Source: Echinarachnius parma (lineage: Eukaryota; Echinodermata; Echinoidea; Clypeasteroida; Echinarachniidae). Taken from it: a DNA stretch of 64,000 bases. Below the pieces are notes generated by a model, which was given only the letters and a program-made list of their open reading frames with translations, was not told where the DNA came from and ran no database searches. The position numbers were made by a program, and so were the translations under genes. The stretch spans positions 1 to 64,000 of the forward strand of contig JBAMJV010010035.1 in NCBI GenBank assembly GCA_037951105.1. The letters are read 5' to 3'. Shown one piece after another: positions 4,899-51,665 of the stretch. Each line of letters starts with the position of its first letter. Position 1 is the first letter of the stretch.

Positions 4899-5207
4899 TT
4901 CGTCTTGCGGATGGTGCAAGAAGCTATGAAGGCCGAGTAGAGGTGTTCTATAACGGAGCCTGGGGGACTGTCTGTCATGACTACTGGGGTATCCAGGATG
5001 GGAACGTTGTATGCAGAAGCCTTGGTTTCCCATCTGCCGAGGCCACATGGGGTGGAGCACCATTTGGAAGGGGTACCGGAGACATTCTTCTGGAGAGTGT
5101 TCATTGCACTGGGTCTGAGCCGACCATCTTAGATTGCACTCACCTTGGTCTCTATGTCCATAATTGCAATCACGCTAAAGATGCTGGTGTGAGATGTACT
5201 TATACAG
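4899..5207 (+). CDS. exon, SRCR domain 1 (block A, unit 1)
   Basis: An exon of 309 bases opens after CTACAG and closes at ACAG|GTGAGC. The first codon is split (x|TT, read as Val). The 103 residues start VRLADGARSYEGRVEVFYNG and keep the SRCR core: WGTVC, VVCRSLGF, FGRGTGDILL, CTGSE, DC, NC and DAGVRC. There are six cysteines, the group A pattern without C1 and C4. CHDYWG replaces the commoner CDDxWD, a variant shared only with domains 5 and 9 (domain 9 has CHNHFG). It is the closest relative of domain 5 and differs from it at about 14 positions. The upstream intron from about 4,745 is also homologous to 16,640-16,790. It is the first SRCR exon visible, but the phase-1 acceptor requires at least one more exon upstream. 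Confidence 0.88.
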
Positions 5208-5936
5208 GTGAGCATTACGGACAATACTTTGACAATTAATCACGTGTATTTAATATGCCTTTTAGTGTGGCAAGATTAATAGTTATTTCAATAATGGGAT
5301 CACGAGGACGTCACATTTGTCCTTGCTAAGCAAGACATTTGTCTACGTTCATTATTCTCAAACCAGACGTATTTTTTGTTTGGGACCCAGTAGGAGGTAA
5401 ACGGCACTGTAAGAAGCTCCCCAACGCTTCCCAAAGCTCGCACAGGAGAATAAGTGGGGAAGGTGCACGCACTCTTTGCAGGCTGGCAATTACATTAATA
5501 CGTTTTATGACTGGTTGATAATATTGAGAAGCGCTTTAATACATAGTATACTAATTGTTTGATGGCTTTGAAAAGTACTAAAGTACATTAATATTACACT
5601 GATATATCCTTTCGGTCAATATACCAGAAATTTAGAGGACAATTTTATTCAAGGAATTGTTTAAAACAAAGTCATTATTAGAATTGCCACTAAACATCAC
5701 AAGTGACAGTCATATTAATTTAATGTCGGGACCAATCATAATAACGCTTTAACCACTATTAGAATATTAATATAAATGTACAGAAGTTCAGACAATGCAT
5801 TTAAAATATATTGTGACAGAGATGTTTTCTTTCTTCGTAGAAAGATGTCGTATTACTTATACTTCCATTAGAATGTATAACGCTTTAAACTGATTCATTT
5901 CAATAATGTATTTATATTTATATAATCACATTGCAG
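5208..5936 (+). other. intron between domains 1 and 2
   Basis: GTGAGC...TTGCAG intron of 729 bases, without a recognisable insertion. It aligns in pieces with the 1,592-base intron between domains 5 and 6, so it serves as the unoccupied reference for two insertions there. Confidence 0.7.
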
Positions 5937-6245
5937 CTCGCCTTCTCGATGGGGATACTATCAATGAGGGTCGTGTGGAAGTATACTACAACGGAACCTG
6001 GGGAACTGTCTGTGATGATGATTGGGATATCAATGATGCGAATATTGTCTGTATAAGTCTTGGTTTCCCGGCTGCCGAAGCCGCTCTGGGAGGCGTAACA
6101 TTTGGCCAAGGGACCGGAGAAATTATACTGGGTGATGTTGATTGTACCGGGACTGAGTCAACCATCTTTGATTGTGCACATGCTGAGCTTGGCGCCCATA
6201 ACTGCCTGCACAGCCAGGACGTTGGCGTCAGATGTTCACATTCAG
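5937..6245 (+). CDS. exon, SRCR domain 2 (block A, unit 2)
   Basis: The exon spans 309 bases between TTGCAG and TTCAG|GTAAAA. The split first codon reads Ala (G|CT), so the domain begins ARLLDGDTINEGRVEV instead of the usual VRL. Core motifs are NGTWGTVC, DDDWDINDANIVC, SLGFPAAEAALGG, FGQGTGEIIL and CTGTESTIFDC, with a closing DVGVRC. Six cysteines are present. An Ile replaces the usual Arg after the second cysteine (IVCISLGF where most domains have VVCRSLGF). Its partner is domain 6 (18,696-19,004), which has the same ARLLDGDTINEG start and differs at about 15 positions. Both flanking introns resemble those of the partner. Confidence 0.88.
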
Positions 6246-6540
6246 GTAAAATGAGAACAAGGAAACAAACGATAAACGAAACTATCAGTAATGTTATGAG
6301 TCTTATAATACACACTGTCCGTTTTTTAAAGATTAAACGAAATAAGTTTGTCAATTAAGTTTATTTCAAATAACATATATATTGTTAAAGGGATTTAGTA
6401 ATATTGTCCAAAAAGAAACAAAATTAGAAATATAATGTTTTCTCATTCCGTGTTGTATCCGTATTCATACCAATAGAAGCATGGAACATATCTTGTTTTT
6501 TCTCAAATTGAAAAAAAAATTCTCAAGTGAACTCACACTT

Positions 6541-7005
6541 AAATGGATAGTTGGGTTTGGTATAGAGGGCGCTCCACGAAATAGTTTTTGTTTGAGATGT
6601 TGAAAAACTGAGTGTCAAATTCGGAATAGCATACAATTGTAATGGCAGAATAAACTTTCTTGATCAAAATTGCTTCAGAAATGACTGAGATATCTATTAA
6701 GATAACTATTTCTAACAATTATGGATCTCCACAATTATAAGATAATTTTGAACCAGCCGTTAAAAATTCATCAAAATGCTTCATTTTTTCAAAAATGTAC
6801 CGAAGAGGTTTGTTAATAGTTGTTGATTATCACTACGGTATTTCAACAATAAATCACATGCACAATACTTTATTTAAAATTGTTGAAACCTATGATTGTT
6901 TAGAGAAAGCCCTAATGAGTTGTAATGGCTGTGTTTTATTGATAATAGGTTTTTACTTAGCCATTTGTAATTTTGTATTCCTTTGAGCATGGTGGAGTAG
7001 TTCAT
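6541..7005. mobile_element. MITE family B copy (degraded)
   Basis: Has the family phrases 'TTTGGTATAGAGGGCGCTCC', 'CAGAATAAACTTTCTTGATC', 'GAGAAAGCCCTAATGAG' and 'GAGCATGGTGGAGTAGTT'. Better-preserved copies lie at 41,931, 52,983 and 61,999. It sits inside a family A MITE. Confidence 0.55.
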
Positions 7006-7630
7006 ACTTCCATTGCATTCAAAATATATTTACGATTGAATTGTTCTGATGTTAAACTGTCTACGGGATAATTTAAGCTGTGCAATAGTAAGTGTAATGA
7101 GTTAGTGCATATCACTTTGTATTTTTGCGCATTCCTCGGGCATATAACATGCATTTAACTCAAGGTTGAAGGTTCATTTTATGTCTTTCTTTCACAAAAA
7201 ACATTTGAACAAACAGCATAAGTAGAACATTTGAAGTGAAATATTCAATCAATGTACAACCAAAATGTGTTTTTTCTTTTTCTAAACAAGTCATACAAGA
7301 AGAGGAGACCGCTGGGCTTGTAAGAGAGGTCCCCATACAAAATAATACATCAATGTTTCAATTACTTTGAAACATTTAAAATAAGTAAAACTATCTCACA
7401 AGACTATGAATGAATAAACATGGGAAAGCGTGGGAAAAATATTTACAAAATGGATAGCTTGAAATTTGAAAAGGAGAGGAGGAAAATATATACAAAAGGA
7501 TGGAGAGGAAAAGAGCAAAATGGAACAAGGCAAACAACAAACATGGAAAAGCAGATAAAGAAGAAGATTGTATGTAGAGGGAATGGGTGTTGGGAAAAAA
7601 TAGGGTGTTAAAAAAAACTTAAAAATAGAA

Positions 7631-7666
7631 CAGAGAGAGAGAAAGAGAGAGATAGAGAGAGAGAGA

Positions 7667-7708
<42 letters not shown>

Positions 7709-7717
7709 GGGAGGGAG
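7631..7717. repeat. (GA)n microsatellite
   Basis: About 85 bases of almost uninterrupted GA repeats with a few A or G interruptions. The Leu/Ser-rich frames on the opposite strand are artefacts of this tract. Confidence 0.9.
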
Positions 7718-9765: not shown

Positions 9766-9837
9766 CCATCTGTTTTTATGTCCTCACTATTTGTCAGTGT
9801 TTTGCCATTTTCGTCATTAATCACATCCAACCTTCAA

Positions 9838-11601: not shown

Positions 11602-11913
11602 TTCGCCTGCAAGATGGAAATAGCAGCAATGAGGGCCGAGTAGAGGTGTCCTACAACGGAACCTGGGGAACCGTCTGTGATGACTATTGGGATATCCAGA
11701 ATGCCATCGTTGTCTGCAGAAGTCTTGGTTTCCCAAATGCTGAGGCCGCACTGGGAGGCGCAACATTTGGACCAGGCTCTGGAGATATTCTGTTAGATAA
11801 TGTTGCTTGTACTGGGACAGAGTCGGACATCTTTGATTGTAAACACATTGGTATCAGGCGCCATAGCGACAACTGTGGTCATGCCAAAGATGCAGGTGTT
11901 CGCTGTCGTCCAG
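11602..11913 (+). CDS. exon, SRCR domain 3 (block A, unit 3)
   Basis: The exon of 312 bases follows TTACACAG and ends CCAG|GTAAGT, a near-consensus donor. The 104 residues begin VRLQDGNSSNEGRVEVSYNG and include WGTVC, DDYWDIQNA, VVCRSLGFPNAEAALGG, FGPGSGDILLDNVAC, TESDIFDC and HSDNCGHAKDAGVRC. One residue is inserted before the seventh-position Cys (RRHSDNC). Six cysteines are present. The preceding intron is 5.4 kb because it carries the nested LINE and MITE cluster. The partner is domain 7 (20,950-21,261). The two share long stretches of identical DNA, but the differences include more amino-acid-changing than silent changes by hand count. Confidence 0.88.
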
Positions 11914-13850: not shown

Positions 13851-14159
13851 TTCGGCTTGAAGGTGGAGATGGTATGAATGAGGGACGAGTTGAGATCTTC
13901 TCCAACGGTACATGGGGGACTGTCTGTGATGATAACTGGGATATCCAGGATGCGAACGTGGTTTGCAGAAGTCTTGGTTTCATGGCTGCGGAGGCGACAC
14001 TAAGTACCAATGAAGTTAGCCCAGGCATTGGAGACATTCAACTTGGTGATGTTGTATGTACCGGGACAGAGACATCCATCTTGGATTGTGCACATGCTGG
14101 GCTTGGAGTCCACAACTGTGACCACAGCAAGGATGTTGGTGTCAGATGTTTATATTCAG
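13851..14159 (+). CDS. exon, SRCR domain 4 (block A, unit 4)
   Basis: The exon has 309 bases, follows CTGATAG and ends TTCAG|GTAAAA. It begins VRLEGGDGMNEGRVEIFSNG and continues TWGTVCDDNWDIQDANVVC, SLGFMAAEATLS and TGTETSILDCAHAGLGVHNC, ending DVGVRC. The loop that normally reads FGxGTGD is NEVSPGIGDIQL, lacking the Phe-Gly pair. Domain 8 shares this loop type. Six cysteines are present. A 560-base hAT-like insertion (13,211-13,770) ends only 80 bases upstream of the acceptor, so the branch site and pyrimidine tract lie in the short stretch between them. Confidence 0.87.
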
Positions 14160-16791: not shown

Positions 16792-17103
16792 TTCGTCTTG
16801 CGGATGGTGCAAGAAGCTATGAAGGCCGAATAGAGGTGTTCTACAACGGGGCCTGGGGAACTGTCTGTCACGACCACTGGGGAATCCAGGATGCGAACGT
16901 TGTATGCAGAAGCCTTGGTTTCCCATCTGCCGAGGCCACATGGGGTGGAGCACCATTTGGAAGGGGTACCGGAGATATTCTGCTGGATGATGTTGGTTGT
17001 ACTGGGTCTGAGGCGACCATCTTAGAATGCAAACTCCCTAATGGTCTGTATGTCCATAATTGCAATCACGCTAAAGATGTTGGTGTCAGATGCAGCTACA
17101 CAG
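16792..17103 (+). CDS. exon, SRCR domain 5 (block B, unit 1)
   Basis: The exon of 312 bases is preceded by CTACAG and ends ACACAG|GTGAAC. It begins VRLADGARSYEGRIEVFYNG, keeps the CHDHWG variant, and continues VVCRSLGFPSAEATWGG, FGRGTGDILLDDVGC and TGSEATILEC, ending DVGVRC. One extra codon relative to domain 1 lies in the LPNGLYVHNC loop. Six cysteines are present. It opens the second copy of the four-exon block. About 150 bases of upstream intron match those in front of domain 1, which marks the duplication as genomic rather than exon-only. Confidence 0.88.
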
Positions 17104-18695: not shown

Positions 18696-19004
18696 CTCGC
18701 CTTCTCGATGGGGATACTATCAATGAGGGTCGTGTAGAGGTATACTACAACGGAACCTGGGGAACTGTCTGTGATGCTGATTGGGATATCCAGGATGCAA
18801 ATGTTGTCTGCAGAAGTCTTGGTTTCCCAAATGCTGAGGCCGCTCTGGGAAGCGCAAGATTTGGCCAAAGGACAGGAGACATTCTACTGGGTGATGTTGA
18901 TTGTACCGGGACAGAGTCAACCATCTTTGATTGTGCACATGCTCCGTTTGGCGCCCATAACTGCATGCACAGCCAGGACGTCGGTGTCAGATGTTTACAT
19001 TCCG
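18696..19004 (+). CDS. exon, SRCR domain 6 (block B, unit 2)
   Basis: The exon spans 309 bases, follows TTGCAG and ends TTCCG|GTAAAA. The split codon gives Ala, so it starts ARLLDGDTINEGRVEVYYNG like domain 2. CDADWDIQDANVVC and RSLGFPNAEAALGSARFG follow, and the exon closes with HNCMHSQDVGVRC. Six cysteines are present. The usual FGQGTGD loop is FGQRTGD, a Gly to Arg change inside a normally conserved turn. The upstream intron contains a 272-base foldback hairpin and an earlier ~400-base inverted-repeat MITE. Neither is found in the matching intron of block A. Confidence 0.88.
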
Positions 19005-20949: not shown

Positions 20950-21261
20950 TTCGCCTGCAAGATGGGAATAGTAGCAATGAGGGCCGTGTAGAGGTATACT
21001 ACAACGGAACCTGGGGAACCGTCTGTGATGACTATTGGGATATCCGGGATGCGAACGTTGTCTGCAGAAGTCTTGGCTTCCCAGTTGTTGAGGCCACACT
21101 GGGAGGCGCAACATTTGGACCAGGCTCTGGAGATATTCTGTTAGATAATGTTGCTTGTACCGGGACAGAGTCGGTCATCTTTGATTGTAGACACATTGGT
21201 ATAGGGATCCATAGCGACAACTGTGGTCATGACAAAGATGCAGGTGTTCGCTGTCGTCCAG
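20950..21261 (+). CDS. exon, SRCR domain 7 (block B, unit 3)
   Basis: The exon of 312 bases follows TTACACAG and ends TCCAG|GTAAGT. It begins VRLQDGNSSNEGRVEVYYNG and continues CDDYWDIRDANVVC, SLGFPVVEATLGG and FGPGSGDILLDNVAC, ending HSDNCGHDKDAGVRC. Six cysteines are present. Compared with domain 3, about 12 residues differ, concentrated in the FPxxEA helix region and the HIGI loop. The flanking introns on both sides match those of domain 3, including a run of related short sentences around 'AGCGACC' upstream and the first 400 bases downstream. Confidence 0.88.
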
Positions 21262-22184: not shown

Positions 22185-22493
22185 TTCGGCTTCAAGGTGG
22201 AGATAGTGTGACTAGGGGACGAGTTGAGATATTCTCAAACGGAGCCTGGGGTACTGTCTGTGATGATAACTGGGATATCCAGGATGCGGACGTTGTTTGC
22301 AGAAGTCTTGGTTTCATGGCTGCGGAGGCGACACTGAGTAGCGATGAATTTAGCCCAAGCACCGGAGACATTCAACTTGGTGATGTTATGTGTACCGGTA
22401 CAGAGACGTCCATCTTGGATTGTGCACATGCTGGGCTTGGAGTCCACAACTGTGACCATAGCCAGGTTGTTGGTGTCAGATGTTTATCTTCAG
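22185..22493 (+). CDS. exon, SRCR domain 8 (block B, unit 4)
   Basis: The exon has 309 bases, follows CTGACAG and ends CTTCAG|GTAAAA. It begins VRLQGGDSVTRGRVEIFSNG. The nearly invariant Glu of the EGRVE motif is Arg here, which is unique among the 19 domains. The rest is ordinary: WGTVCDDNWDIQDADVVC, SLGFMAAEATLS and TGTETSILDC, ending VVGVRC where other domains have DAGVRC or DVGVRC. Six cysteines are present. It is the last exon before a 16.3-kb intron that carries the large transposon nest. The partner is domain 4. Confidence 0.86.
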
Positions 22494-22509
22494 GTAAAAT
22501 AATACGCTT

Positions 22510-23300
22510 AAGAGATGCACTATGTACGCACCTCCGTCGGCCTCCAGTAATGGAACTTGCACATTATTTACTTGTCAATGATGTAGGGTCTACACAAATA
22601 TCATGAGACCCAAGTTCATGTCCAGATACAGGTTTTTTGCCTGCGCTTGTTATGCCTCTGCAAAACGAAGATGAGTCAGTATTGTAGCAAAACATCCTTT
22701 GGAGTTTTGAATGGATCCACACTAAAGTTACAGTTACGAATGCACGGCGGGAAACCCAACAATCTGCTCCTCCGAAATGTTTCCAGGATGCCGAATACGC
22801 GGACTGCTGTATACCGGTTCTGGTCAAGATACACCACGCCCATAGAATGGACGATCTTTGTGTCAAATATATTACCTGATGTGCTGAATGGAGATTTCAC
22901 GCCGTGTTTACAGTGTAGATGGCTACACTCGTAGTTCCACTGGTTGCCTGCTGTGTTGATGGAAATTCTGTTAAATCTTCGTCGTTCCACCCGTACCCGG
23001 CAAGTTCGTTTGTTATTGTGTTCCTCGAGTCCCACGTCGCTCAGCAAGGATCGTGCAAACTTTGTCTCCAGTATCCCTCGCTGCTCGGAAAGTTCATTCA
23101 AACCTGTTTCCAGAATCTGTTGCTGCTCTGCAGGTTCATGCAAACCTGTTTCCAGAATGCAACAATGCTCTGCAGGTTCGTGCAGAGCTGTTTCCAGAGT
23201 CCCACGTTTCTCTGCAAGATTCCCTGTCTTGTGATCTTCAGAGTATTGTTTGTCTTGAATGTGTTCTTCGCATCTGTCTTGTGATCTTCACACCGACCTT
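22510..23300 (-). pseudogene. dispersed unrecognised coding-like fragment, minus strand
   Basis: On the minus strand a 155-codon frame starts in 14-residue repeats (HEPAEQQQILETGL, NELSEQRGILETKF) that look coiled-coil. A Cys/His stretch (ECSHLHCKHGVKSP) and an ordered-looking C-terminal part follow. A second minus frame downstream (SAGKKPVSGHELGSHDICVD) recurs almost unchanged at 20,079-20,216, so the segment is a repeated unit. I do not recognise the family. It could be part of a larger transposon or a decayed gene fragment. Confidence 0.4.
23060..23225. repeat. 42-base tandem repeat, ~3.5 copies
   Basis: Degenerate units such as GCAGGTTCATGCAAACCTGT followed by TTCCAGAATGCAACAATGCTCT. The 42-base period keeps a 14-residue coding repeat on the minus strand. 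Confidence 0.75.
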
Positions 23301-23456
23301 CCCATGCCCACTTAGTTTAATTTAAAAACTAGCCAGTACTGCCAGCGGCATAGGGCCACTCCGTCAAATACTATTCCGGCACACTGCTTAGGCAATCACA
23401 TGTCATATGACGTCTATTTGGCGGCAGTCTCCCATTTATACAGGGGTAATACCATA

Positions 23457-23817
23457 GTGGAAGCGGTGTGGTAAGATCGGTAGAGCGCGTGCTTTCTGAT
23501 CGTGAGTCCCCGAGTTCGAACCCTGCCCACTGCCTTTGTCCTTCAGCAATGCATTTTATCCACATTGCTGCTCTCTACCTAGGAGTATAAATGGGTACCT
23601 GGTTGGGTGTTAATTAGCATGCGCGCTATCATCATATGGCTGCCATTAGCTAGTATGCTCCCCGGGGAGTTGAGATGGTGCACAAGGTAATTGTGCGGGT
23701 TTGAACTGTACCAGTAACGACCAGGGTAATAATACAAGCGCATAGAGACGTGCTTCGGCAATGTGATATGCGCTATATAAAAACTGTGTATTATTATTAT
23801 TATTATTATTATTAATG
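23457..23817 (+). mobile_element. tRNA-derived SINE with (ATT)n tail
   Basis: The head GTGGTAAGATCGGTAGAGCG looks like a tRNA A-box region, and GAGTTCGAACCC at 23,512-23,523 is a pol III B box. The body ends GATATGCGCTATATAAAAAC and (ATT)n. Minus-strand relatives lie at 61,195-61,553 and, truncated, at 50,741-50,925. Confidence 0.8.
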
Positions 23818-26922: not shown

Positions 26923-26942
26923 CTATCCCCCCTCCTCATAAG
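26923..26942 (-). other. polypurine tract of the LTR element
   Basis: The minus strand reads GAGGAGGGGGGATAG against the 3' LTR. Equivalent tracts follow LTR copies 2 and 3 (28,903 and 34,271). Confidence 0.65.
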
Positions 26943-33229: not shown

Positions 33230-33334
33230 CACGAGCAGGTTCATATTCCATTTTTACCAGTGTGAACTGAAATGAAGGATGTTGTCGCTATGTCAGGCAC
33301 GTGTTAAAGTCTGTATCCCACCGCTGCACACCAG

Positions 33335-34270
33335 TGTTACAAATGTCGGGTGATGACAAATGTTTGGGATGAGGATGATGATGATAATGATGATATGTTG
33401 TGTGTCTTTAAATTAATACGTTCAGTTCCACTCACCAATCACACAGTTTCGCAATCAATCACGGTAGCGTGCCTCAAACAATCCAACGTAAGGAGACAAT
33501 AATGGATGAGGATTCAAGTTCTGAAATTAGATAACTGCTTGAGTTTATTCAAGAGTACATACCACATATGGGTTGACACGAATGTGGGATTACTAAATGT
33601 AGGCTGCGGAGAACGCAGATCAGAACTAGCTCAAAAACGTAACTAAACTCGCCCTAACCCATGGCTATATAGCTAACTCCAATCCACACTGACTACGAGC
33701 TCTCTGGTACAACTAACGAACTCCCCTGTACAACTAACCATCGTACAACTCACCACCTCATTTAGGAAAAGTCAAGTATTTATACACTTTACAAGAAAGT
33801 AGAGACATGTTGAAGTCTTCGACAAATATGTAAGGTATTTCAAATATCTCAACATCATAAGAAACATTGCATAGTTTTACACATACTTCAACTTCATATA
33901 AAAAATAGCATTCTTTCTAAAACAAAGAATAAGATAAAACACCAAAATATTATGGAATGGGGGAATTTCTGGAATTCAGAGCATGAGCAAGAGAATGTCA
34001 ACATTTAGGAAAGGAAAGTGGTATCTGGTAGGAAAGAGAGGGCCACTTGTTCTGATTCCAAAACAAGACGATAAGCGAGAGTAATACGACCCACGCGGGA
34101 GGGCTAGAAACTGAGGGATGGGAATCAAAGGAAAAAGAGAGAGGGGAAGCGAGATAGTGGAGATCTGACTAAACATGAATCAACGACGAAACGCATTTAT
34201 ACATTCATTTACTACAGGTCAGGTATAATTGTCCAATACTTTGCAAATACGATCATGAACATTCGTAACA
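33335..34270 (-). repeat. LTR copy 3 (central)
   Basis: 936 bases with scattered substitutions against copies 1 and 2. It has internal sequence on both sides: the primer-binding-like site at left and the purine tract at right. Confidence 0.85.
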
Positions 34271-36558
34271 CTATCCCCCCTCCCCATAAGTCGATGCCCT
34301 CATCGACATGATTAAAATAAGAGGACATTCAAATTCTCATCAACAATTTTCAATAAACTCATTATTATAACATTTCAATAATTTAAAGCGAAAACAAATT
34401 GTATACAGACTATAAACTGATGCAAAATAACAGCGTTTTCAATTCAATCAAAGTTCATGGTTAAATCAAGTTTAAACAAGTACATAATAAAAACAAAATC
34501 GACCAATCGTTCCTTTCTTGCGAAACTATGTCTGGCCACAAAAAATGTGGTACATGTATTATCATAACACATCACGTGTATTTACAACGTACAACATAAA
34601 CACGAGCAATAGGTGTCAAAACAAGTGAGAGAGTGAGAACAGATTCAGGCGTAACAGGTGAGAAAGATCGAAAGGGGAGAGAGAGTCAATGCGATAGGGA
34701 CGAGTTATAGTGGATAGATAGAGGAGGAGAGAAATATGGGTTGAGAGGGAGAAGAGAAGAAAGTGATTGGTCTAAAAGAGATAACACGCATATCGTGATT
34801 TCCTGCAAAACCAAATAAGATGGCAAAGTTAAAACACCAACGAAACAAAACTTGTCGACATTGCGACATAACATGTGAATCACAACCAATACTGTATGTC
34901 ATGTACTTGTATGTGCTGTCATTTTACACAGTTCCTAATTTCGATCGACACATTTTGCCACATATAATTTCAACGACAATCAGCAAGAAATCCCAGCATG
35001 TTATGATCAAATATACATGCACACATAAATCCGAACCAATTCAACTGCCATACAATATTTAAAAATCGACATCAGCACAATACAACAAAAACAAGTTGCA
35101 TAATGTGCATGAACATGATTAGCAAACACATCCTAGTACAGGAATGACAGAGTGAGTGATAAACAGAGAGGGAGAGAGGGGGTAGAAAGAAGAACTGAAG
35201 ACATGTGTTATATACAGACTCTAACTGCTCGGAACACAACATGCATCAACAAAATATACGCTCGCCTTATACAACCCCTGTATAAAATATATGCGAACCA
35301 AAAATACGGAATAAACTATTAACATGCATGAAAAGGAGAAACAAGAAACGATCGAAATTCAAGTACTTATAGAAAGAGAACATCCAAACATAAAATTGAA
35401 CGCTGCACAGTAACCGACACATCAAATTCCTGTATACAACTTACACGGAACATTAACTACCAATAACTTCTTAAAACAAAACACACGTTCGTTTACCACA
35501 ACAACTCTTATGTTTACGTTCATTCTCCTTCTTTTCGCATTCAGTTTTTGACGTTTCTTGTTTCTTCAAATTAATAATGCATACAAACTTATTCTAACTT
35601 TCATTAAATTTCACAGTGTGTTAAAGAACAAACATTGTTAAACATGTCATAATTTCATCAAGCAAAAATAAAAGGCTAAATTAAAGTCAAACTGTATCCT
35701 CGGTCATTGTACTGAGTTCATTATTGTCCAAGTTAATAAGTTTATTTCAACATGCAATAAATAAAGTTCCTTTTCTTCGCCAACACCAAGGGAATGTCTA
35801 TATAGTTCATTGTCTCAGCTTCAAAGTTTAATTATTATAATATTATTCCTTCATAAATAATCGAAATTCTGACGATGATCACCACTGCAACAATCCGAGT
35901 CCGGCCAAGACCCGCCGTGATCGATGCCCATGGTCGTGTTCGTCATACACATATACTATCTGGATACGGGAATAGTAAATTTCGATGTAATCGCTTCCAT
36001 GACGCTGTCGTGGTCATCTTCTGCGTCGTGGTTTATAAAACGTTCCCGGACGATTTGTGGAAAGGCGGCTTCCTGCGGCCCGGAGATTCCGGCTAAGGCG
36101 TCTGTGTTGGAGACGCAGGGCAGGTTGTCGTTTCGTACTTCGACCGCGTGATGGTCGCGATATCTTAATTTACACTATATAAATTACCGGGCTCGTTCCA
36201 ACGGAACCATATGGCAACGGCCCCTCAGCTCCGATTTCGGCGCGACCATTTGTTCAGATACCCAGTATGTTCCAACACATACTGGCTGTATCACAACGCG
36301 ACTTAACATACAAATTAACCTAAACTACATATATCGCACCTCACTTCATAATCCACTACAGCAACGATGACCCCAAGGCTCCTCCATATCGAAGACGATA
36401 ATTTATCACACTTTATCTCACAAATATCAATTAAAAGCTGTGTCGCAAACAAACCTCTTTGTTCACGTTTCATTACAATACAGCTAAACAGCTCTGCATA
36501 ATTTACGATCCATATCCATAAATCTCAAATATTATTTTCCCAGATATGTGCTAGCTGA

Positions 36559-36861
36559 TTAATGACGTCTAAACGCTTCCCTCGATGCCGTCGAATTACA
36601 GAATATTTTACATGCCGATAGGTAAGGTTCTAGGTAATTCCGTCCGTGTACCACTCGAACTTCCAGCCGTTCCAGCACACAAGAAGGAACGACGCCGCAC
36701 ATGACGTCATGTGTGCTGATTCCCGCTGACGATGAACTACGGCATGCGGACGGCGATGACACGGGGTCGTCGAGAGGGCCGCTCCAGCTCCATACACGCC
36801 AGGCCAGAAGCTTCTCCTCGAACTCGCCAAAATGACCACCAACATCCACCACCCTGACCAC
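36559..36861 (-). other. second copy of the small LTR-internal frame
   Basis: The counterpart of 31,212-31,514, open over the same 100 codons with about three or four residue differences. No known domain. Confidence 0.3.
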
Positions 36862-37206
36862 GTGCCAAGCTTAGTCATACTGGCCTCCATCATATCAGGA
36901 TCACTCGCCCAACTCTTCCTCCGTGAGCATGTCCATCTCCAAACATGGCGATCTTCATACCAATGTGAATTGTATGAACTGGCGACAACAAATCCAAATC
37001 GTGTCCATGATCTTAATCACAGAGCATGTACTCCTCTTGCCGACATTATGGTGTAAGATTAAATATCCGATTTAGTTTCTGGCTGGAGCCATTTCTCCAG
37101 AAAACCGAGGTACAGAGGTTGCACGAGCAGGTTCATATTCCATTTTTACCAGTGTGAACTGAAATGAAGGATGTTGTCGCTATGTCAGGCACGTTTTAAA
37201 GTCTGT

Positions 37207-37226
37207 ATCCCACCGCTGCACACCAG
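37207..37226 (-). other. primer-binding site of the LTR element
   Basis: On the minus strand, TGGTGTGCAGCGGTGGGAT begins one base inside the 5' LTR. TGG pairs with the CCA end of a tRNA. An identical site precedes LTR copy 3 at 33,315-33,334. The tRNA is not assigned. Confidence 0.65.
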
Positions 37227-38163
37227 TGTTACAAATGTCGGGTGATGACAAATGTTTGGGATGAGGATGATGATGATAATGATGATATGTTGTGTGTCTT
37301 TAAATTAATACGTTCAGTTCCACTCAGCAATCACACAGGTTCGCAATCAATCACGGTAGCATGCCTCAAACAATCCAACGTAAGGAGACAATAATGGATG
37401 AGGATTCAAGTTCTGAAATTAGATAACTGCTTGAGTTTATTCACGAGTACATACCTACATACGGGTTGACACGAATGTGGGATTACTAAATGTAGGCTGC
37501 GGCGAACGCAGATCAGAACTAGCTCAAAAACGTAACTAAACTCGCCCTAACCCATGGCTATATAGCTAACTCCAATCCACACTGACTACGAGCTCTCTGG
37601 TACAACTAACGAACTCCCCTGTACAACTAACTATCGTACAACTCACCACCTCATTTAGGAAAAGTCAAGTATTTATACACTTTACAAGAAAGTAGAGACA
37701 TGTTGAAGTCTTCGACAAATATGTAAGGTATTTCAAATATCTCAACATCATAAGAAACATTGCATAGTTTTACACATACTTCAACTTCATATAAAACATA
37801 GCATTCTTTCTAAAACAAAGAATAAGATAAAACACCAAAATATTATGGAATGGGGGAATTTCTGGAATTCAGAGCATGAGCAAGAGAATGTCAACATTTA
37901 GGAAAGGAAAGTGGTATCTGGTAGGAAAGAGAGGGCCACTTGTTCTGATTCCAAAACAAGACGATAAGCGAGAGTAATACGACCCACGCGGGAGGGCGAG
38001 AAACTGAGGGATGGGAATCAAAGGAAAAAGAGAGAGGGGAAGCGAGATAGTGGAGGTCTGACTAAACATGAATCAACGACGAAACGCATTTATACATTCA
38101 TTTACTACAGGTCAGGTATAATTGTCCAATACTTTGCAAATACGATCATGAAAATTCGTAACA
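37227..38163 (-). repeat. LTR copy 4 (5' LTR, outermost right)
   Basis: 937 bases. It ends at the GGAG target duplication and resumes hAT-like shell sequence. Confidence 0.85.
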
Positions 38164-38462
38164 GGAGTATAGGTACACTGTTTTATACAATATATAACAC
38201 CCATGATAGGAGTTGCAAATGTCTGAAATCTAAAAGCTTCCGGGGGCTCCGCCCCCTGGACCCCCATTATTGTCCCAAACAGTGGGTGCCCCCCCCCCCC
38301 AAATCAGGTCGTCGAGCCATCAAGACACTTTCAATGAGCGCATAATAAAACTTCAGGGCATGCCAATGTGGTGCTTTTAGCTCTCTCATTGGTCACTCTG
38401 GAAATGTTTTCAAATTTCGCCTCCCCCAATATCAAAAACGGATCGACGCCCCTGTGAAAAGG

Positions 38463-38526
38463 CCTGAAATAGAAATGTTTTTGTTAATGCTTAAATATGA
38501 TATAGTTTTTCCTGAATGTTAGGGTA

Positions 38527-38557
<31 letters not shown>

Positions 38558-38750
38558 AAACAATGTTGCCCAAATTTGACTTGAGCAATTGCCCTAGCAA
38601 GATATACTTTTCCTCGAAAGTAACATTATTTTACAAAACTCCTGGCTCTGCAGCCCCGTAGCCAGCCCTGTTCGTATGCCTATGATGGGTGTCGATCCAA
38701 TACAAATTCTGCTTTATCTGATTTTCTTATTTGATATGTTGACTACACAG
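38463..38750 (+). other. intron remainder before domain 9
   Basis: Non-coding, including the telomere-like tract described separately. The acceptor GACTACACAG ends it. Confidence 0.6.
38518..38556. repeat. interstitial telomere-like tract
   Basis: GTTAGGGTAAGGGTTAGGGT and continuation: about six TTAGGG-type units with two imperfect ones, 56 bases outside the target duplication of the hAT-like shell. Confidence 0.8.
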
Positions 38751-39059
38751 TTCGTCTAGAAGGTGGAGCACACAGATATGAAGGCCGAGTAGAGGTGTTC
38801 TACAACGGAGCCTGGGGAACTGTCTGTCATAACCACTTTGGTATCGACGACGCGAGAGTTGTCTGCAGAAGTCTTGGTTTTCCAAATGCCGAGGCCCCAC
38901 TTAATTCGGCAGCATTTGGTCGAGGCACAGGAAACATTTTACTGGATGAGGTTGGTTGTACCGGAACAGAGTCAACCATTTTTAATTGCGCCCATTCTGG
39001 GCTTGGAATCCACAAGTGTGACCATAGTAAAGATGCAGGTGCCCGCTGTACTAATAATG
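38751..39059 (+). CDS. exon, SRCR domain 9
   Basis: The exon of 309 bases follows CTACACAG and ends AATAATG|GTAAAT. It begins VRLEGGAHRYEGRVEVFYNG and continues AWGTVCHNHFGIDDARVVC, SLGFPNAEAPLNSAAFG, RGTGNILLDEVGC and TESTIFNC, ending HKCDHSKDAGARC. Six cysteines are present. The CHNHFG motif and RYEGRVE start link it to domains 1 and 5, so it may be a third, older copy of unit 1. It begins 288 bases after the right end of the transposon nest and just after a telomere-like tract. Confidence 0.86.
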
Positions 39060-40165: not shown

Positions 40166-40468
40166 TTCGCCTTCAAGATGGGAGTGACGGCAATGAAGGT
40201 CGGGTGGAAGTTTACTTTAATGGAGCATGGGGAACTGTCTGTGACAATAGCTGGGATGTCAAGGATGCGAACGTTGTCTGTAGAAGTCTTGGATTTCCAG
40301 CTGCAGAGGCCGCCTTGGTAGAAGCGACATTCGGCAAGGGCACAGGGGACATTCTCTCCGACGTTCGTTGTACAGGGATAGAGTCAGACATACTTTATTG
40401 TCCTCGCGATGGTATAAGAAACCATAACTGCGCTCATCAAGATGATGCAGGAGTTCGGTGTGCACGGG
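40166..40468 (+). CDS. exon, SRCR domain 10
   Basis: At 303 bases this is the shortest SRCR exon. It follows TACCAG and ends CACGG|GTAAGA after a final G. It begins VRLQDGSDGNEGRVEVYFNG and continues AWGTVCDNSWDVKDANVVC, SLGFPAAEAALVE, FGKGTGDILSDVRC, TGIESDILYC and NHNCAHQDDAGVRC. The GDILxD loop is shorter than in other domains (DILSDVRC against DILLDNVRC). Six cysteines are present. It is separated from domain 9 by a 1.1-kb intron that contains a 428-base foldback element. Confidence 0.86.
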
Positions 40469-41583: not shown

Positions 41584-41895
41584 TTCGGCTGCAAGATGGG
41601 GGAAATGTGAATGAGGGTCGTGTAGAGGTGTATTACAATGGAGCCTGGGGAACTGTCTGTGATGATGAGTGGGATGTTCAGGATGCAGACGTAGTCTGCA
41701 GAAGTCTTGGATTCCCAGCTGCCAAGGCCGCACTCAATGGGACAGTTGTATTTGGACCAGGCACTGGTGAAATTGTATTAGATGATGTTCGGTGTACCGG
41801 GACAGAGTCAGCCATCTTTGATTGTACCCACGCTGGTCTAGGAAGTCATGACTGTGTACATGATCAAGACGCAGGTGTCCGATGTCACCATAATG
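41584..41895 (+). CDS. exon, SRCR domain 11
   Basis: The exon of 312 bases follows ATGACAG and ends TAATG|GTAGCA. It begins VRLQDGGNVNEGRVEVYYNG and continues AWGTVCDDEWDVQDADVVC, SLGFPAAKAALNGTVVFG, PGTGEIVLDDVRC, TESAIFDC and HDCVHDQDAGVRC. One residue is inserted in the ALNGTVVFG loop. Six cysteines are present. NGT in that loop is a possible N-glycosylation sequon. A TTAA-type MITE (41,931-42,467) begins only 36 bases after the donor site. Confidence 0.87.
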
Positions 41896-43021: not shown

Positions 43022-43327
43022 TTCGACTTCAAGATGGGGGTTATGGTACGGAAGGTCGAGTAGAAGTATTCTCCAACGGAGTTTGGGGAACTGTCTGTGA
43101 TGACTTATGGGATATTCATGACGCGACCGTTGTCTGCAGAAGTCTTGGTTTCCCAGCTGCAGAGGCCGCACTGAGTAGCGCAGCATTTGGCCAAGGCACC
43201 GGACACATTATACTGGATGATGTTCGTTGTACTGGGGCAGAGTCAACAATCTTTGATTGTCTTTATCTTGATCTACGAGTTAATGACTGTTCCCACCAAG
43301 AAGATGCAGGGGTTAGGTGTAAATCAG
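43022..43327 (+). CDS. exon, SRCR domain 12
   Basis: The exon of 306 bases follows TTCCCAG and ends AATCAG|GTAGCC. It begins VRLQDGGYGTEGRVEVFSNG and continues VWGTVCDDLWDIHDATVVC, SLGFPAAEAALSSAAFG, QGTGHIILDDVRC, GAESTIFDC and NDCSHQEDAGVRC. Six cysteines are present. TGAES replaces the usual TGTES. It lies 549 bases upstream of domain 13, one of the shorter introns in the gene. Confidence 0.87.
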
Positions 43328-43876: not shown

Positions 43877-44197
43877 TTCGTCTCGAAGATGGTGATGATG
43901 ACAACGAAGGTCGTGTAGGAGTGTTCTATGACGGAGCTTGGTGGAGTGTCTGTGATAATGGCTGGGATATCCAGGATGCGAACGTTGTCTGTAGAAGTCT
44001 AGGTTTCATAGCTGCCGAGACTGCCTCGTCTGAGTTGGAACTCAGTCCTGATGCTGGAGCTGTTCTATTAAACAATGTTAACTGTGCGGGAACAGAGTCG
44101 GACATTTTTTACTGCACTTACGAAGGTCTAGGAAACCAGAACTGTGGGCCTGGTTTGTTTAGGGGTGCAGGTGTTCGATGTGCACCGCTTCTCAATG
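43877..44197 (+). CDS. exon, SRCR domain 13 (divergent)
   Basis: The exon of 321 bases follows CCGATAG and ends CAATG|GTAAAC. It begins VRLEDGDDDNEGRVGVFYDG. The EGRVE motif has become EGRVG and WGTVC has become WWSVC. VVCRSLGFIAAETASSELEL follows, with an aberrant loop LSPDAGAVLLNNVNC, then TESDIFYC and GNQNCGPGLFRGAGVRC, in which four residues are inserted between the last two cysteines. All six cysteines are kept and the frame is open, so it looks expressed but structurally the most divergent domain after domain 19. Confidence 0.83.
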
Positions 44198-45517: not shown

Positions 45518-45823
45518 TTCGACTTCAGAATGGAGCGGACAAAAGTGAAGGTCGCGTCGAGGTGTTACATAGTACTATCTGGAGAACTGTCTGTGATGAT
45601 GAATGGGATATTCAGGATGCGAACGTTGTCTGCAGAAGTCTGGGTTTCCCAGCTGCCAAGGCTGCACTAGGTAGCGCAGCATTTGGCCAGGGCACAGGAA
45701 ACATTCTACTGGATAATGTTCGCTGTACCGGGACTGAGCCAAATATCTTTGCGTGTAGTTCAAACCAAATTGGGCACCATAACTGTGTTCATCTTCAAGA
45801 TGCTGGTGTCCAATGCATGACAG
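45518..45823 (+). CDS. exon, SRCR domain 14
   Basis: The exon of 306 bases follows a long T tract and TTTTTAG and ends TGACAG|GTAACT. It begins VRLQNGADKSEGRVEVLHST. The turn normally NGAWG is STIWR, giving IWRTVC. CDDEWDIQDANVVC, SLGFPAAKAALGSAAFG, QGTGNILLDNVRC and TEPNIFAC follow, ending HHNCVHLQDAGVQC. Six cysteines are present. The loss of the WG glycine and the Arg to Gln change before the last Cys are unusual. It is preceded by a foldback element whose right end lies 85 bases upstream. Confidence 0.85.
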
Positions 45824-46452: not shown

Positions 46453-46758
46453 TTCGCCTTGAAGGTGGGAGTAACACTAAAGAAGGTCGAGTAGAAGTAT
46501 TCTATAACGGAACCTGGGGAACTGTCTGCGATGATAGCTGGGATATCGATGATGCGAACGTTGTCTGCAAAAGTCTCGGCTTTCCAGCTGCTCTGGAAGC
46601 CCTTGGAGGGGGTGCATTCGGTGAGGGCGCTGAGAAAATTCTCTTCGATGACGTCAGTTGCGTTGGAACCGAAACTAGCATCTTTGAATGTGACCACAGT
46701 GGCCTTGGCATGAATGATTGCAGGCATTCCGAAGATGCGGGTGTTCGTTGTTTATCTG
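46453..46758 (+). CDS. exon, SRCR domain 15
   Basis: The exon of 306 bases follows TATAAAG and ends TATCTG|GTAATT. It begins VRLEGGSNTKEGRVEVFYNG and continues TWGTVCDDSWDIDDANVVC, SLGFPAALEALGGGAFG, EGAEKILFDDVSC, GTETSIFEC and NDCRHSEDAGVRC. The glycine-rich loop reads EGAEKIL instead of QGTGDIL. Six cysteines are present. The acceptor lacks a strong pyrimidine tract (TTATATTATAAAG), so this splice site may be weak. Confidence 0.85.
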
Positions 46759-47483: not shown

Positions 47484-47798
47484 TCCGACTTCAAAACGGA
47501 ACAGACAACAACGAAGGTCGAGTAGAGGTGTACCACAATGGGGCCTGGGGAACTGTCTGTGATGATGGTTGGGATATTCAGGATGCGAATGTTGTTTGCA
47601 AAAGTCTTGGGTTGCGGGCTGCAGTAACTCTGGTGGATAACACCGCGTTTAGTCCAGGCACCGGAGCCATTGCTTTATCCCACCTTGGCTGCGTAGGAAA
47701 TGAATCAGACATCTTTGATTGTGCTCACGCTGGCCTTGGTATCCACAACTGTGTTCACTTAGAAGACGTTGGGGTCCGATGCGCTTCAGCCCTTCAAA
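47484..47798 (+). CDS. exon, SRCR domain 16
   Basis: The exon of 315 bases follows TTTCAG and ends TTCAAA|GTAAGA. Because the last base is A, the codon joined to the next exon reads ATT (Ile) rather than Val. It begins VRLQNGTDNNEGRVEVYHNG and continues AWGTVCDDGWDIQDANVVC, SLGLRAAVTLVDNTAFS, PGTGAIALSHLGC, NESDIFDC and HNCVHLEDVGVRC. SLGF is SLGL, and LRAAVTLVDN departs from the FPAAEAAL family pattern. Two NGT/NES-type sequons are visible. Six cysteines are present. Confidence 0.85.
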
Positions 47799-48457: not shown

Positions 48458-48772
48458 TTCGTCTAGGAAATGGAAACAATTACACTGAAGGTCGAGTTGA
48501 ACTGTATTACAACGGAGCCTGGGGAACTGTCTGTGATGATACCTGGGATATCCAGGATGCGAACGTTGTCTGCAGAAGTCTTGGTTTCCCGGCTGCCGAG
48601 GCCGCACTGGCTGGGTCATCATTTGGGCCAGGCACCGGGGACATTATCTTAGAGAATATCGACTGTGTAGGTACAGAGTCGGACATCCTCGACTGTGGTC
48701 ACTCCAGCCTTGGGAACAGCAGCTGCGGACATCAGAAAGATGCTAGTGTCCGGTGTTTAGCAGACATTCCAG
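48458..48772 (+). CDS. exon, SRCR domain 17
   Basis: The exon of 315 bases follows TATGCAG and ends TTCCAG|GTACAT. It begins with an Ile or Val split codon, then RLGNGNNYTEGRVELYYNG, AWGTVCDDTWDIQDANVVC, SLGFPAAEAALAGSSFG, PGTGDIILENIDC, TESDILDC, SSCGHQKDASVRC and a short LADIP linker. DASVRC replaces DAGVRC. NYT and NSS are possible N-glycosylation sites. Six cysteines are present. The linker extension at the exon 3' end recurs in domains 16 and 18. Confidence 0.86.
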
Positions 48773-49120: not shown

Positions 49121-49435
49121 TTCGTCTTGAAAGCGGAACAAATGGCATGGAAGGTCGAGTAGAAGTCTTCCACAACGGAGCCTGGGGGACTGTCTGCGAT
49201 GATTTCTGGGATATCCAGGATGCGAACGTTGTGTGCAGAAGTCTTGGTTTCCAAGCTGCCGATGCTGCTTTTAGAGGAGCATTATTCGGTGAAGGCACAG
49301 GGGAGATTCTCCTCCGTAGAGTCGACTGTACCGGGACAGAGTCGGACATCTTCGATTGTCGCCATGATTGGTTGATGGACAATAGCTGCAGTCACCAGCA
49401 AGATGCAGGGGTGCGATGTACATCAGACCTCGAAG
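49121..49435 (+). CDS. exon, SRCR domain 18
   Basis: The exon of 315 bases follows GTTACAG and ends CGAAG|GTACAT. It begins VRLESGTNGMEGRVEVFHNG and continues AWGTVCDDFWDIQDANVVC, SLGFQAADAAFRGALFG, EGTGEILLRRVDC, TESDIFDC and NSCSHQQDAGVRC, with a TSDLE linker. Six cysteines are present. The RR before VDC is a basic patch not seen in other domains. This penultimate SRCR domain lies 453 bases before the last one. Confidence 0.86.
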
Positions 49436-49888: not shown

Positions 49889-50233
49889 TACGGCTCGCGG
49901 GTGGCGCAATCACTAACGAAGGGCGGGTTGAGATCTTGCACCAGGGAAGGTGGCGACCTGTTTGTGGCGATAAGACTTGGGACTTGCAAGATGCAGAAGT
50001 TGTCTGCAGAAGCCTCGGATACCCTGGCGCTGAGGAATCATATGCAGAACCAACAACTAGAGAAGAGGGAGGAATGAAAACCCTGTTAGATGGTGTTGAC
50101 TGCACGGGGAACGAGATGTCCATATTTGAATGTGGACACAGGGGTCTTGGAGTGGCAGACTGTGTAACGAATGCAAGAGCAGGTGCCCGATGTTCAGAAC
50201 CTACACAAGCACCTACTCAAGCGCCTACTCAAG
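49889..50233 (+). CDS. exon, SRCR domain 19 plus Thr/Pro/Gln stalk
   Basis: The longest SRCR exon (345 bases) follows CTAAAG and ends CTCAAG|GTATAT. It begins VRLAGGAITNEGRVEILHQG. The canonical WGTVC is replaced by RWRPVC, and one residue is inserted in CGDKTWDLQDAEVVC. SLGYPGAEESYAEP and an atypical acidic loop (TREEGGMKTLLDGVDC) follow, then NEMSIFEC and ADCVTNARAGARC. Six cysteines remain. The last 14 residues are a PTQA repeat (EPTQAPTQAPTQG), a likely O-glycosylated juxtamembrane stalk. It is the most divergent domain and appears to be the fixed membrane-proximal module. Confidence 0.86.
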
Positions 50234-50258
50234 GTATATTAGTGTAATCGTTGAACTA

Positions 50259-50590
50259 AGGGAGAGTACAGTTTAGGTTAGTCAAATATTAGTTTCTAAA
50301 ACTAATGCTATCATTAAACAAAACTAACAGTTATAACTCAATGATGCTTTAATGGAAACAAATCGTACAAACGGCTTAGAAAAAGCCTGTTGTCATTCAA
50401 AAAGCAGTCTTTAAAACACCGGAGGGCGTTCAAAAAAGCGTTTTTATTTGTTGAAAATTGTAAATGTCGTGTTTAGTTTAAATGATAATTTAATAGAGAG
50501 ATCTTTAACAACTGCTTAAATACCTTCGGTAAACTGTTGCTGAAATAACGTTTCTATGAAATTTCGTTTTATGCTTTTTTGTTCGTGTTA
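50259..50590. mobile_element. MITE family B copy, degraded
   Basis: Starts AGGGAGAGTACAGTTTAGG. Internal phrases CAGTTATAACTC and TTAATAGAGAGATCTTTAAC match the family. It fills the intron between domain 19 and the transmembrane exon. Confidence 0.5.
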
Positions 50591-50630
50591 ATTGGCACTG
50601 TGATTCATATTTACTAATTCACTTTGATAG

Positions 50631-50721
50631 GCCCATCGGTGATCATCCCAATCGTGGCATCTGTGGCAGGCATAATTCTTCTCATCCTGGTGATTGTGAT
50701 CGTCGTTTGCGTTTGCAAGAG
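50631..50721 (+). CDS. exon, transmembrane segment
   Basis: This small exon of 91 bases lies between TTGATAG and AAGAG|GTCAGT, phase 1 at the acceptor and phase 2 at the donor. It reads G-PSVIIPIVASVAG followed by an uninterrupted aliphatic stretch to VVCVCKR. That gives about 25 hydrophobic residues with a stop-transfer Lys-Arg and two cysteines near the inner face, which could be palmitoylated. This directly supports a type I single-pass topology. No start or stop lies inside. It is too short to stand out as a reading frame on its own, but phase and position fit both neighbours exactly. Confidence 0.82.
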
Positions 50722-50740
50722 GTCAGTAAATTACTTTTAA

Positions 50741-50925
50741 TGATAATAATATATTATCCTCAATTTATATAGCGCCTATCACGATTTATAATCATCTCTA
50801 AGCGCTTTACAAGTATATTATTACCCCGGTCATCGGATACATTCTGCAATCAATCCGGCACACATAGTGCGCGTTTTCCACTCCCTGGGAAACATTCCAG
50901 CCACGGGCAAACTTGTGTTTATCAC
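50741..50925 (-). mobile_element. truncated SINE, minus orientation
   Basis: AATTTATATAGCGCCTATCA through CTAAGCGCTTTACAAGTATA and CCCGGTCATCGGATACATTC matches the 3' half of the SINE family at 61,195. It lies in the intron between the transmembrane and tail exons. Confidence 0.7.
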
Positions 50926-51277
50926 AAACAACACCAAACTCAAGCATGAAAGAGACTTAAAAAAAAAAACAGTTTGGAGGGCTCACGCTAGGTTACACAG
51001 AAGAAGATTTTAACATTAGATATATCGTATCAAAACCCAGGTATGCAAGTCATTAACATCTTTTTGAGCAGTAGACCGTCCTCCAATAAGACGTTAACAT
51101 TTTATTAAAAAGCATTAATCAGCGAAAATCTTATATCGAGATAAAAATCACTAGAAACAATAAAAGAAAAAATAAACAAATCTATTTTGTTTATTAGAGA
51201 CTATTCGTATTGTATGATCTCCATCGTTGTCTTAACTTTTTCTTTTTATATCGATATGATTGTACTGTGTTGTGCAG

Positions 51278-51665
51278 GTCTAAGGCAGGTAATTGTACCA
51301 GAACCTCAGAGGGGGCAGCTGTGGATGGTCCTGGCCTGCGAAGCAATCCTGCATTCGGTTCAGATGAAGCGACCCTACCCCCTAAGCCTCTCGGTAGCCA
51401 TGATTACGACTATGTTTATGGGGAGAGTGGGCAAAGCGAACGTGACACAAATCATCCAAGTTTATCGCATGTATACCACACCGTTCCGGTACGGGTAACC
51501 GAAGAGAAAAAGAGACGTGGAGCTGGTACTACGGAAGACACCGGGGCACGACGTCCGACCGTTGGTTCCCCTGAAACCCACGTCTACGAGATCCCAAACC
51601 CAGGCAACGAATATGTTGAACTTCAAGGGGTAGACACGCATGTTTACACGTCACCCATTAACTAA
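51278..51665 (+). CDS. terminal exon, tyrosine-rich cytoplasmic tail
   Basis: This terminal exon of 388 bases follows TTGTGCAG. The split codon AG|G gives Arg, and the frame runs 128 residues to TAA at 51,663-51,665. Seven tyrosines are present: a DYDYVYGES cluster, HVYHTV, THVYEI, NEYVEL and a C-terminal THVYTS. The motif HVY occurs three times. YHTV, YVEL and YDYV fit the YxxPhi sorting or SH2-binding pattern. LPPKPLG is a possible SH3 ligand, and a basic EKKRRGAG patch lies mid-tail. Inference: the tail couples to kinases, adaptors or clathrin adaptors. None of the sites is a strict ITIM, since the residue two before each Tyr is His, Asn or Asp. No homologous tail was recognised. Confidence 0.82.

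What the first reader, a model, noticed from the sequence alone, without database searches (positions are those of the whole stretch)
4899..51665. Giant receptor of at least 19 SRCR domains with a continuous 2,137-residue frame
Nineteen one-domain exons, a membrane exon and a signalling-type tail join in perfect phase across 47 kb. Such an array with a transmembrane end is rare outside large invertebrate deuterostome SRCR families. Because every SRCR exon is phase 1-1, any subset could be skipped or shuffled without breaking the frame, which is a structural route to receptor diversity.
Basis: partly seen in the sequence, partly recalled or inferred. Interest (0 to 1): 0.72.

Follow-up and report, generated by a model that had tools for sequence, protein, structure and literature searches.

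The report
Giant 19-domain SRCR receptor gene
This looks like a genuine gene for a very large cell-surface immune-type receptor built from 19 copies of one module, and a closely related copy of the gene in the same genome carries four modules fewer, so the length of such receptors varies in the DNA itself.

Summary
All 19 exons pass Pfam's SRCR cut-off. Each lies between AG and GT and is phase 1-1. With membrane and tail exons they join into 2,137 residues with one terminal stop. No other SRCR exon was detected in the window.

The two-gene alternative is now unlikely. The 16.3-kb intron holds a 12.2-kb young LTR-type insertion between GGAG repeats; without it about 4.1 kb remain. Another copy has about 3.9 kb between the matching exons. 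No tail homology and no convincing signal exon were found inside.

Domains 1-4 and 5-8 are a duplicated four-exon cassette. Contig C4338, probably the other haplotype, has one cassette (15 domains) before the same 11 proximal domains. Exons 10-19 look mosaic among copies and are under purifying selection. Diversity is thus visible in the DNA; exon skipping is untested.

Arrays of this size are known: sea cucumber proteins with 1-51 SRCR domains; human DMBT1, which gains or loses a four-SRCR unit. New member of a known kind. The signal exon was not found; the contig starts 4.9 kb before domain 1.

The parts
4899..5207 (+). SRCR exon D1 (cassette 1, type a)
5937..6245 (+). SRCR exon D2 (cassette 1, type b)
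11602..11913 (+). SRCR exon D3 (cassette 1, type c)
13851..14159 (+). SRCR exon D4 (cassette 1, type d)
16792..17103 (+). SRCR exon D5 (cassette 2, type a)
18696..19004 (+). SRCR exon D6 (cassette 2, type b)
20950..21261 (+). SRCR exon D7 (cassette 2, type c)
22185..22493 (+). SRCR exon D8 (cassette 2, type d)
22494..38750 (+). 16,257-bp intron between D8 and D9; about 4,076 bp without the insertion
25987..38163 (.). young compound LTR-type insertion (about 936-bp terminal repeats TGTTAC...GTAACA at 25987, 27967, 33335, 37227; outer flanks GGAG/GGAG)
38751..39059 (+). SRCR exon D9 (type a, divergent between copies)
40166..40468 (+). SRCR exon D10
41584..41895 (+). SRCR exon D11
43022..43327 (+). 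SRCR exon D12
43877..44197 (+). SRCR exon D13
45518..45823 (+). SRCR exon D14
46453..46758 (+). SRCR exon D15
47484..47798 (+). SRCR exon D16
48458..48772 (+). SRCR exon D17
49121..49435 (+). SRCR exon D18
49889..50233 (+). SRCR exon D19 with Pro/Thr/Gln stalk; the 12-bp stalk repeat varies in number between copies
50631..50721 (+). transmembrane exon (phase 1 to 2)
51278..51665 (+). cytoplasmic tail exon, 7 tyrosines (YHTV, YEIP, YVEL, YTSP among them), stop at 51663-51665

Best explanation
One gene encodes a type I membrane receptor. Its outer part is a chain of 19 group A-type SRCR domains, each from one phase 1-1 exon, followed by a short Pro/Thr/Gln stalk, a membrane helix and a 129-residue tail with seven tyrosines. 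The array is modular: a four-exon cassette (a-b-c-d), present twice here and once in the probable sister haplotype C4338, sits distal to a fixed 11-domain membrane-proximal block. Inferred: many SRCR domains bind repetitive, negatively charged microbial or self ligands with bound cations. Multivalency gives avidity, and the tail tyrosines recruit endocytic or SH2-domain proteins. Receptor diversity arises mainly in the DNA, through cassette gain or loss and exchange or conversion between copies, rather than by proven exon skipping. Shown: exons, frame, membrane exon, copies, cassette difference, uneven divergence by exon, purifying selection. Not shown: expression, signal peptide, ligand, signalling.
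For: Frame and splice sites; Pfam 19 of 19. In a tree of 83 of 88 detected domain rows, each position groups with its counterparts in the other plus-type gene copies, and D1/D5, D2/D6, D3/D7, D4/D8 group with C4338's four cassette domains. C4338 carries 4+11 domains against 8+11 here. C9964 shows two d-type exons before each of its two giant-type tails, and its second gene shows a-d-a-d-a. Membrane and tail splice sites and the YEIP/YVEL stretch are kept in all 6 giant-type copies aligned. The nonsynonymous/synonymous ratio over D10-D19 is 0.36, 0.42 and 0.36 against three copies. Exon-level heterogeneity p = 7e-4, 2e-6 and 1e-5. Long intron explained by an insertion. 12 of 19 domains keep the Asp-Asp pair whose loss abolishes ligand binding in DMBT1 SRCR8 (PMC7043408 passages).
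Against: No RNA evidence. No convincing signal-peptide exon in 1-4898, nor in C4338's 19.5 kb upstream, where the best candidate proved a dispersed repeat. Seven of 19 domains lack the Asp-Asp pair and only 4 of 19 keep all six presumed chelating positions. No tail tyrosine matches the strict ITIM consensus (consensus recalled). That C4338 and C10015 are alleles rather than recent segmental duplicates is probable, not proven: C4338 also matches C10731 (95%) and C10110 (93-98%). The type c pairing with C4338 rests on the tree; by identity D3 is as close to C4338's b domain (75%). For the first C9964 gene only one a-type exon is listed. A 12-kb insertion in the D8-D9 intron could disturb splicing of this haplotype.
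Confidence: 0.77

Rival explanations
1. Two neighbouring genes: D1-D8 belong to one gene, and D9-D19 with the membrane and tail exons to another, split at the 16-kb gap.
For: The gap is long (16,257 bp) and no transcript is available. C10110 and C10731 show only the 11-domain block, but both are cut by a contig end. The looser scan listed 7 signal-like rows in the gap.
Against: Of those 7 rows, 6 lie inside the insertion and none has the expected G donor. No tail homology between D8 and D9 in window or C4338. Intron ends align to C4338's intron. About 12.2 kb of the gap is a young LTR-type insertion. Matching exons lie about 3.9 kb apart in C9964 and about 1.5 kb apart in the inverted paralogue (its d exon is damaged).
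Confidence: 0.12
2. The extra cassette or the long intron is an assembly artefact.
For: 25571-27551 equals 27551-29531 at 99.95%, so a stutter in the intron is possible. The assembly is in 14,790 contigs with much near-duplicate sequence at this locus.
Against: Cassettes differ at synonymous sites by 0.175 and in their introns, far too much for a stutter. C9964 also carries two d-type exons before each of its two giant-type tails.
Confidence: 0.07
3. The gene is a decaying copy and makes no full receptor.
For: The inverted paralogue on the same contig is damaged (D19 broken into two frames; one base extra in the membrane exon; d exon without donor). A young insertion sits in the D8-D9 intron.
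Against: All 21 exons found of the window gene are open with intact splice sites. Amino-acid changes are constrained (ratio 0.36-0.42).
Confidence: 0.1
4. Diversity comes mainly from exon skipping.
For: All 19 SRCR exons are phase 1-1, so skipping keeps the frame.
Against: Symmetric phase is general for such domains (recalled) and gives no evidence of skipping. Differences already seen are genomic.
Confidence: 0.15

Closest known systems
Human DMBT1 (SALSA, gp340)
   Same: Long SRCR array in which domain number is polymorphic; its CNV1 is a loss or gain of a four-SRCR unit (PMC4851238 passages). Divergent 5' haplotypes tied to short and long arrays (PMC9038570 passages).
   Different: DMBT1 is secreted and has SID, CUB and zona pellucida domains (PMC4851238 abstract in the listing and passages); this gene has a membrane exon and a cytoplasmic tail without Pfam match, and 6 Cys per domain.
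Bovine WC1 co-receptors (and CD163)
   Same: Multigene family of SRCR receptors with repeated domain cassettes, a-[b-c-d-e-d]-[b-c-d-e-d'], transmembrane region and cytoplasmic tail (PMC3511184 passages).
   Different: WC1 has 11 or 6 domains of group B (group: PMC2681482 and PMC2906472 abstracts in listings); here 19 domains of 6 Cys each, a four-domain cassette, and a tail with no Pfam match.
Echinoderm and other invertebrate SRCR expansions
   Same: Hundreds of SRCR genes, mostly in tandem clusters, with one-exon domains in one sea urchin cluster (PMC10855680, part 1 of the results section); sea cucumber proteins with 1-51 SRCR domains, mostly 6 Cys (PMC13228809 passages).

Membership tests
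SRCR domain superfamily (PF00530) | Domains pass Pfam's curated cut-off | tested here: met
   19 of 19 above 26.1 bits, lowest 84.7
SRCR group A (6 Cys) | Six conserved cysteines per domain | tested here: met
   19 of 19 have 6
SRCR group B | Eight cysteines per domain | tested here: not met
   0 of 19; the one-exon gene structure does resemble group B (recalled)
Membrane SRCR receptor | Membrane-spanning segment and cytoplasmic tail in frame | tested here: met
   exons 50631-50721 and 51278-51665, kept in relatives; judged by eye from hydrophobicity, no TM predictor run
Membrane SRCR receptor | Signal peptide | tested here: inconclusive
   only weak candidates in the window; contig start 4.9 kb before D1
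DMBT1 | CUB and zona pellucida domains after the array, secreted | tested here: not met
   after the array comes a membrane exon and a tail without Pfam match at E 0.01; the N-terminus is missing and untested
WC1/CD163 family | Group B domains (eight Cys) | tested here: not met
   6 Cys in 19 of 19 domains
WC1/CD163 family | Vertebrate origin | not tested
   species not determined (COX1 request unanswered)
Cation-dependent SRCR ligand binder | Asp-Asp pair of the dual cation site | tested here: inconclusive
   12 of 19 domains keep it, mapped by spacing; binding not testable
ITIM receptor | Strict tyrosine motif in tail | tested here: not met
   7 tyrosines listed; none has I/V/L/S two residues before (consensus recalled)

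The most novel reading that the evidence does not exclude
An animal membrane SRCR receptor whose ectodomain length is an allelic trait: deep, divergent 5' haplotypes carry one or two copies of a four-domain cassette (15 against 19 domains) while the 11-domain proximal block is shared and reshuffled exon by exon between copies. It would be a parallel to the four-SRCR length polymorphism of human DMBT1, possibly kept by balancing selection.
Probability: 0.35. Interest if true: 0.62.

Novelty: new member of a known kind. Interest (0 to 1): 0.43.

Why it matters
It gives a concrete, checkable case of how animals may vary the avidity of an innate-type receptor: by cassette copy number and exon exchange in the genome, not necessarily by splicing. 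The parallel with human DMBT1, where a four-SRCR unit also varies and the gene shows signs of balancing selection, makes convergent evolution of SRCR array length testable in a population sample.

Tried and rejected
Signal exon: a promising candidate in C4338 (11130, hydrophobic start) was rejected because the sequence is a dispersed repeat, 40 scored of 880 candidates, all at 98-100% identity. In the window the candidate at 1182 was rejected because its ATG is not kept in the aligned stretch of C4338; the one at 1513 lies in the reverse-transcriptase frame. Other rows in the window, C4338 and C10015 97-108 kb were weak. The scan is a hydrophobicity heuristic, not SignalP.

Two-gene reading: tested by intron homology, tail search and spacing in other copies; judged unlikely. 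Assembly stutter as the source of D5-D8: rejected on divergence.

First regex for stalk and membrane exons in relatives failed; replaced by an alignment. The automatic donor finder picked a false early GT for the c-type exons (D3, D7 and C4338's third) and found none for D19 of C4338+ and C10731-; one search shows those D19 donors. Dropped before the tree: 5 of 88 domain hits below 100 bits; the a-type exon found later at C10015:106339 was not in it either. Rfam: no match in the window. Phylum by mitochondrial COX1: not completed. One literature search on invertebrate SRCR copy-number variation listed one paper, which I did not read.
Full report
OBSERVATION. The window is bases 1-64000 of contig C10015 (115,477 bases) in an unnamed 1.2-Gb genome of 14,790 contigs. 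A profile from the candidate exons, run over 2,790 frames of both strands, finds 19 SRCR domains on the + strand and no others. Independently, 19 of 19 exceed Pfam's SRCR cut-off. All 19 exons have AG before, GT after and a length divisible by three, and join in phase 1. With the membrane exon (50631-50721) and tail exon (51278-51665) they give 2,137 residues and one final stop.

ONE GENE. The D8-D9 intron is 16,257 bp. Its beginning (pieces within 22503-25126) and end (38455-38750) align in order to the corresponding intron of C4338. Between them lies a compound element with about 936-bp terminal repeats beginning TGTTAC and ending GTAACA. Matches to one repeat number 42 from 40 scored of 274 candidates, at 78-100% identity; four are the window's own, and many of the others come in pairs about 3.7-4.5 kb apart. 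The outer flanks are GGAG on both sides. Without it about 4,076 bp remain. In the second gene of C9964 the last d-type exon match ends at 124910 and the next a-type match starts at 128778, about 3.9 kb; in the inverted paralogue the two types are about 1.5 kb apart. No tail homology was found between D8 and D9 in the window or in C4338. The signal-exon scan gave, in the window's gap, 7 rows of which 6 lie inside the insertion and none has a G before the donor (zero rows when G is required), and 2 weak rows in C4338's gap. A split gene is therefore unlikely but only RNA can exclude it.

THE 5' END. No convincing signal exon was found in the 4.9 kb before D1. C4338 12581-14082 aligns in pieces to window 1085-4808, and C4338's 19.5 kb upstream of its first SRCR exon hold no further SRCR. 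So 19 is probably the full SRCR count, but the start of the protein is missing.

CASSETTES. Within the window D1-D4 pair with D5-D8 at 85-88% protein identity, one to one, and the stretches around them match in patches at 75-87%. Synonymous divergence over the block is 0.175 and the nonsynonymous/synonymous ratio 0.41. C4338's plus-strand gene has 4+11 SRCR exons; its b and d domains are as close to the window's as the window's two copies are to each other (87-90% against 85-86%), its a and c domains less so (75-79% where listed), and D3 by identity is no closer to C4338's c than to its b. In a tree of 83 of the 88 detected domain rows (70 distinct, 31 of 67 inner branches well supported, few columns) each position groups with its counterparts in the other plus-type copies, the four cassette types group across D1-4, D5-8 and C4338, and D1, D5 and D9 types fall together (98/87), so type a opens each module. 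The inverted paralogue fits less well: its D9-position exon lies at the edge of the a group and its exons at the b and c places do not join the b and c clades, so those two names are by position only. C9964 shows two d-type exons before each of its two giant-type tails and a-d-a-d-a for its second gene; for its first gene one a-type exon is listed, between the two d (40 scored of 446). The inverted paralogue of C10015 has d-type exons at 109344 and 89931 (40 scored of 478) and an a-type exon at 106339. For C4338's inverted gene the matching a-type exon lies at 122666 near the contig end at 124982, so its cassette count is open.

HAPLOTYPES. C4338 and C10015 match at 98.5-99.4% over three long blocks between 68.2 and 99.6 kb of C10015, with some 6 kb between them matching another part of C4338, and at 93-99% over most of 54.4-64.9 kb behind the plus gene; the 5' half aligns only in patches. 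Synonymous divergence from C4338 is 0.069 over D10-D19 but about 0.2 over the cassettes and 0.24 at D9, where the ratio is 0.98. Most likely these are two haplotypes with a deeply divergent 5' half. Recent segmental duplication is the alternative, since C10731, C10110 and C9964 carry further near-identical 3' blocks: D16 exon 98-99% in 5 other places, 91% in 2, 89% in 1, of 40 scored from 602 candidates. The tail exon has 11 other copies at 85-95% over more than 400 bp (18 matches from 17 of 17 candidates).

MOSAICISM AND SELECTION. Differences from the window in D10-D19 are unevenly spread over exons for all three copies compared (chi-square 28.9, 43.1, 39.0, 9 d.f.; p = 7e-4, 2e-6, 1e-5), and the closest copy switches from exon to exon. 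This fits exchange or gene conversion between copies; differing constraint per exon could add to it and was not separated in that test. Ratios of 0.36, 0.42 and 0.36 show purifying selection. Single-exon ratios are noisy (0 to 10 synonymous changes each for C4338) and I draw nothing from values above 1 at D12 and D13.

FUNCTION. In DMBT1 SRCR8, changing D1019 or D1020 abolishes binding, and the dual cation site is proposed for all SRCR domains (PMC7043408, passages). The mapping to these domains is by spacing, not by a structure, and D19 has an extra residue there. 12 of 19 keep the Asp-Asp pair and 4 of 19 keep six potential chelators; the three type a domains have His instead of the first Asp. 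So the array is probably a mix of cation-dependent binders and spacers or specialised domains (inference). The tail has seven tyrosines; the YEIP-YVEL stretch is kept in 6 of 6 giant-type copies and not in the 2 short fragments aligned. YVEL fits a YxxL-type endocytic or SH2 site (recalled); no strict ITIM.

COMPARISON. Long SRCR arrays are known: H. glaberrima proteins with 1-51 SRCR domains, mostly group A (PMC13228809, passages); DMBT1 with an estimated 7-20 SRCR domains by allele and a four-SRCR unit that is lost or gained (PMC4851238, passages); WC1 with repeated cassettes, membrane segment and tail (PMC3511184, passages). Sea urchin SRCR genes are mostly in tandem clusters, and in one cluster of 16 genes all but one gene have one-exon domains (PMC10855680, part 1 of the results section; also outline and passages).

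VERDICT. A giant membrane SRCR receptor gene with an intact frame and signs of selection; a new member of a known kind. What adds interest is the DNA-level cassette difference between probable haplotypes and the DMBT1 parallel, not the symmetric exon phase.

Noticed in passing
window 25571-29531: Near-perfect tandem duplication (1,981 bp, 99.95%) inside the D8-D9 intron; recent duplication or assembly stutter.
   Followed up: partly
window 25987-38163: Young compound LTR-type element with four terminal repeats and GGAG flanks; relatives widespread in the genome; six short open frames in and beside it have no Pfam match above cut-off.
   Followed up: partly
window 1420-2148 (+) and 9238-9783 (-): Reverse transcriptase remnants: the first passes the Pfam RVT_1 cut-off, the second is below it.
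   Followed up: no
C10015 67497-106638 (L001-L004, L021), minus strand: Inverted, partly decayed paralogue: D14 lost except a short remnant, d exon damaged in both haplotypes, D19 broken and one extra base in the membrane exon in this haplotype, while C4338's D19 and membrane exon look intact (its D13 lacks AG at the expected place).
   Followed up: partly
C10110:21024-22762, C10731:53885-52137, C9964:67384: Short D19-plus-tail fragments 7.6-8.8 kb downstream of giant genes (C9964 known from its tail match only); the two that were read lack the SRCR acceptor AG and carry a stop or frame lesion.
   Followed up: partly
window 44572-45442: About 205-bp tandem repeat with inverted copies between D13 and D14.
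   Followed up: no
window 22679-23287 (-): 203-residue open frame overlapping a 42-bp repeat, no Pfam match at E 0.01.
   Followed up: no
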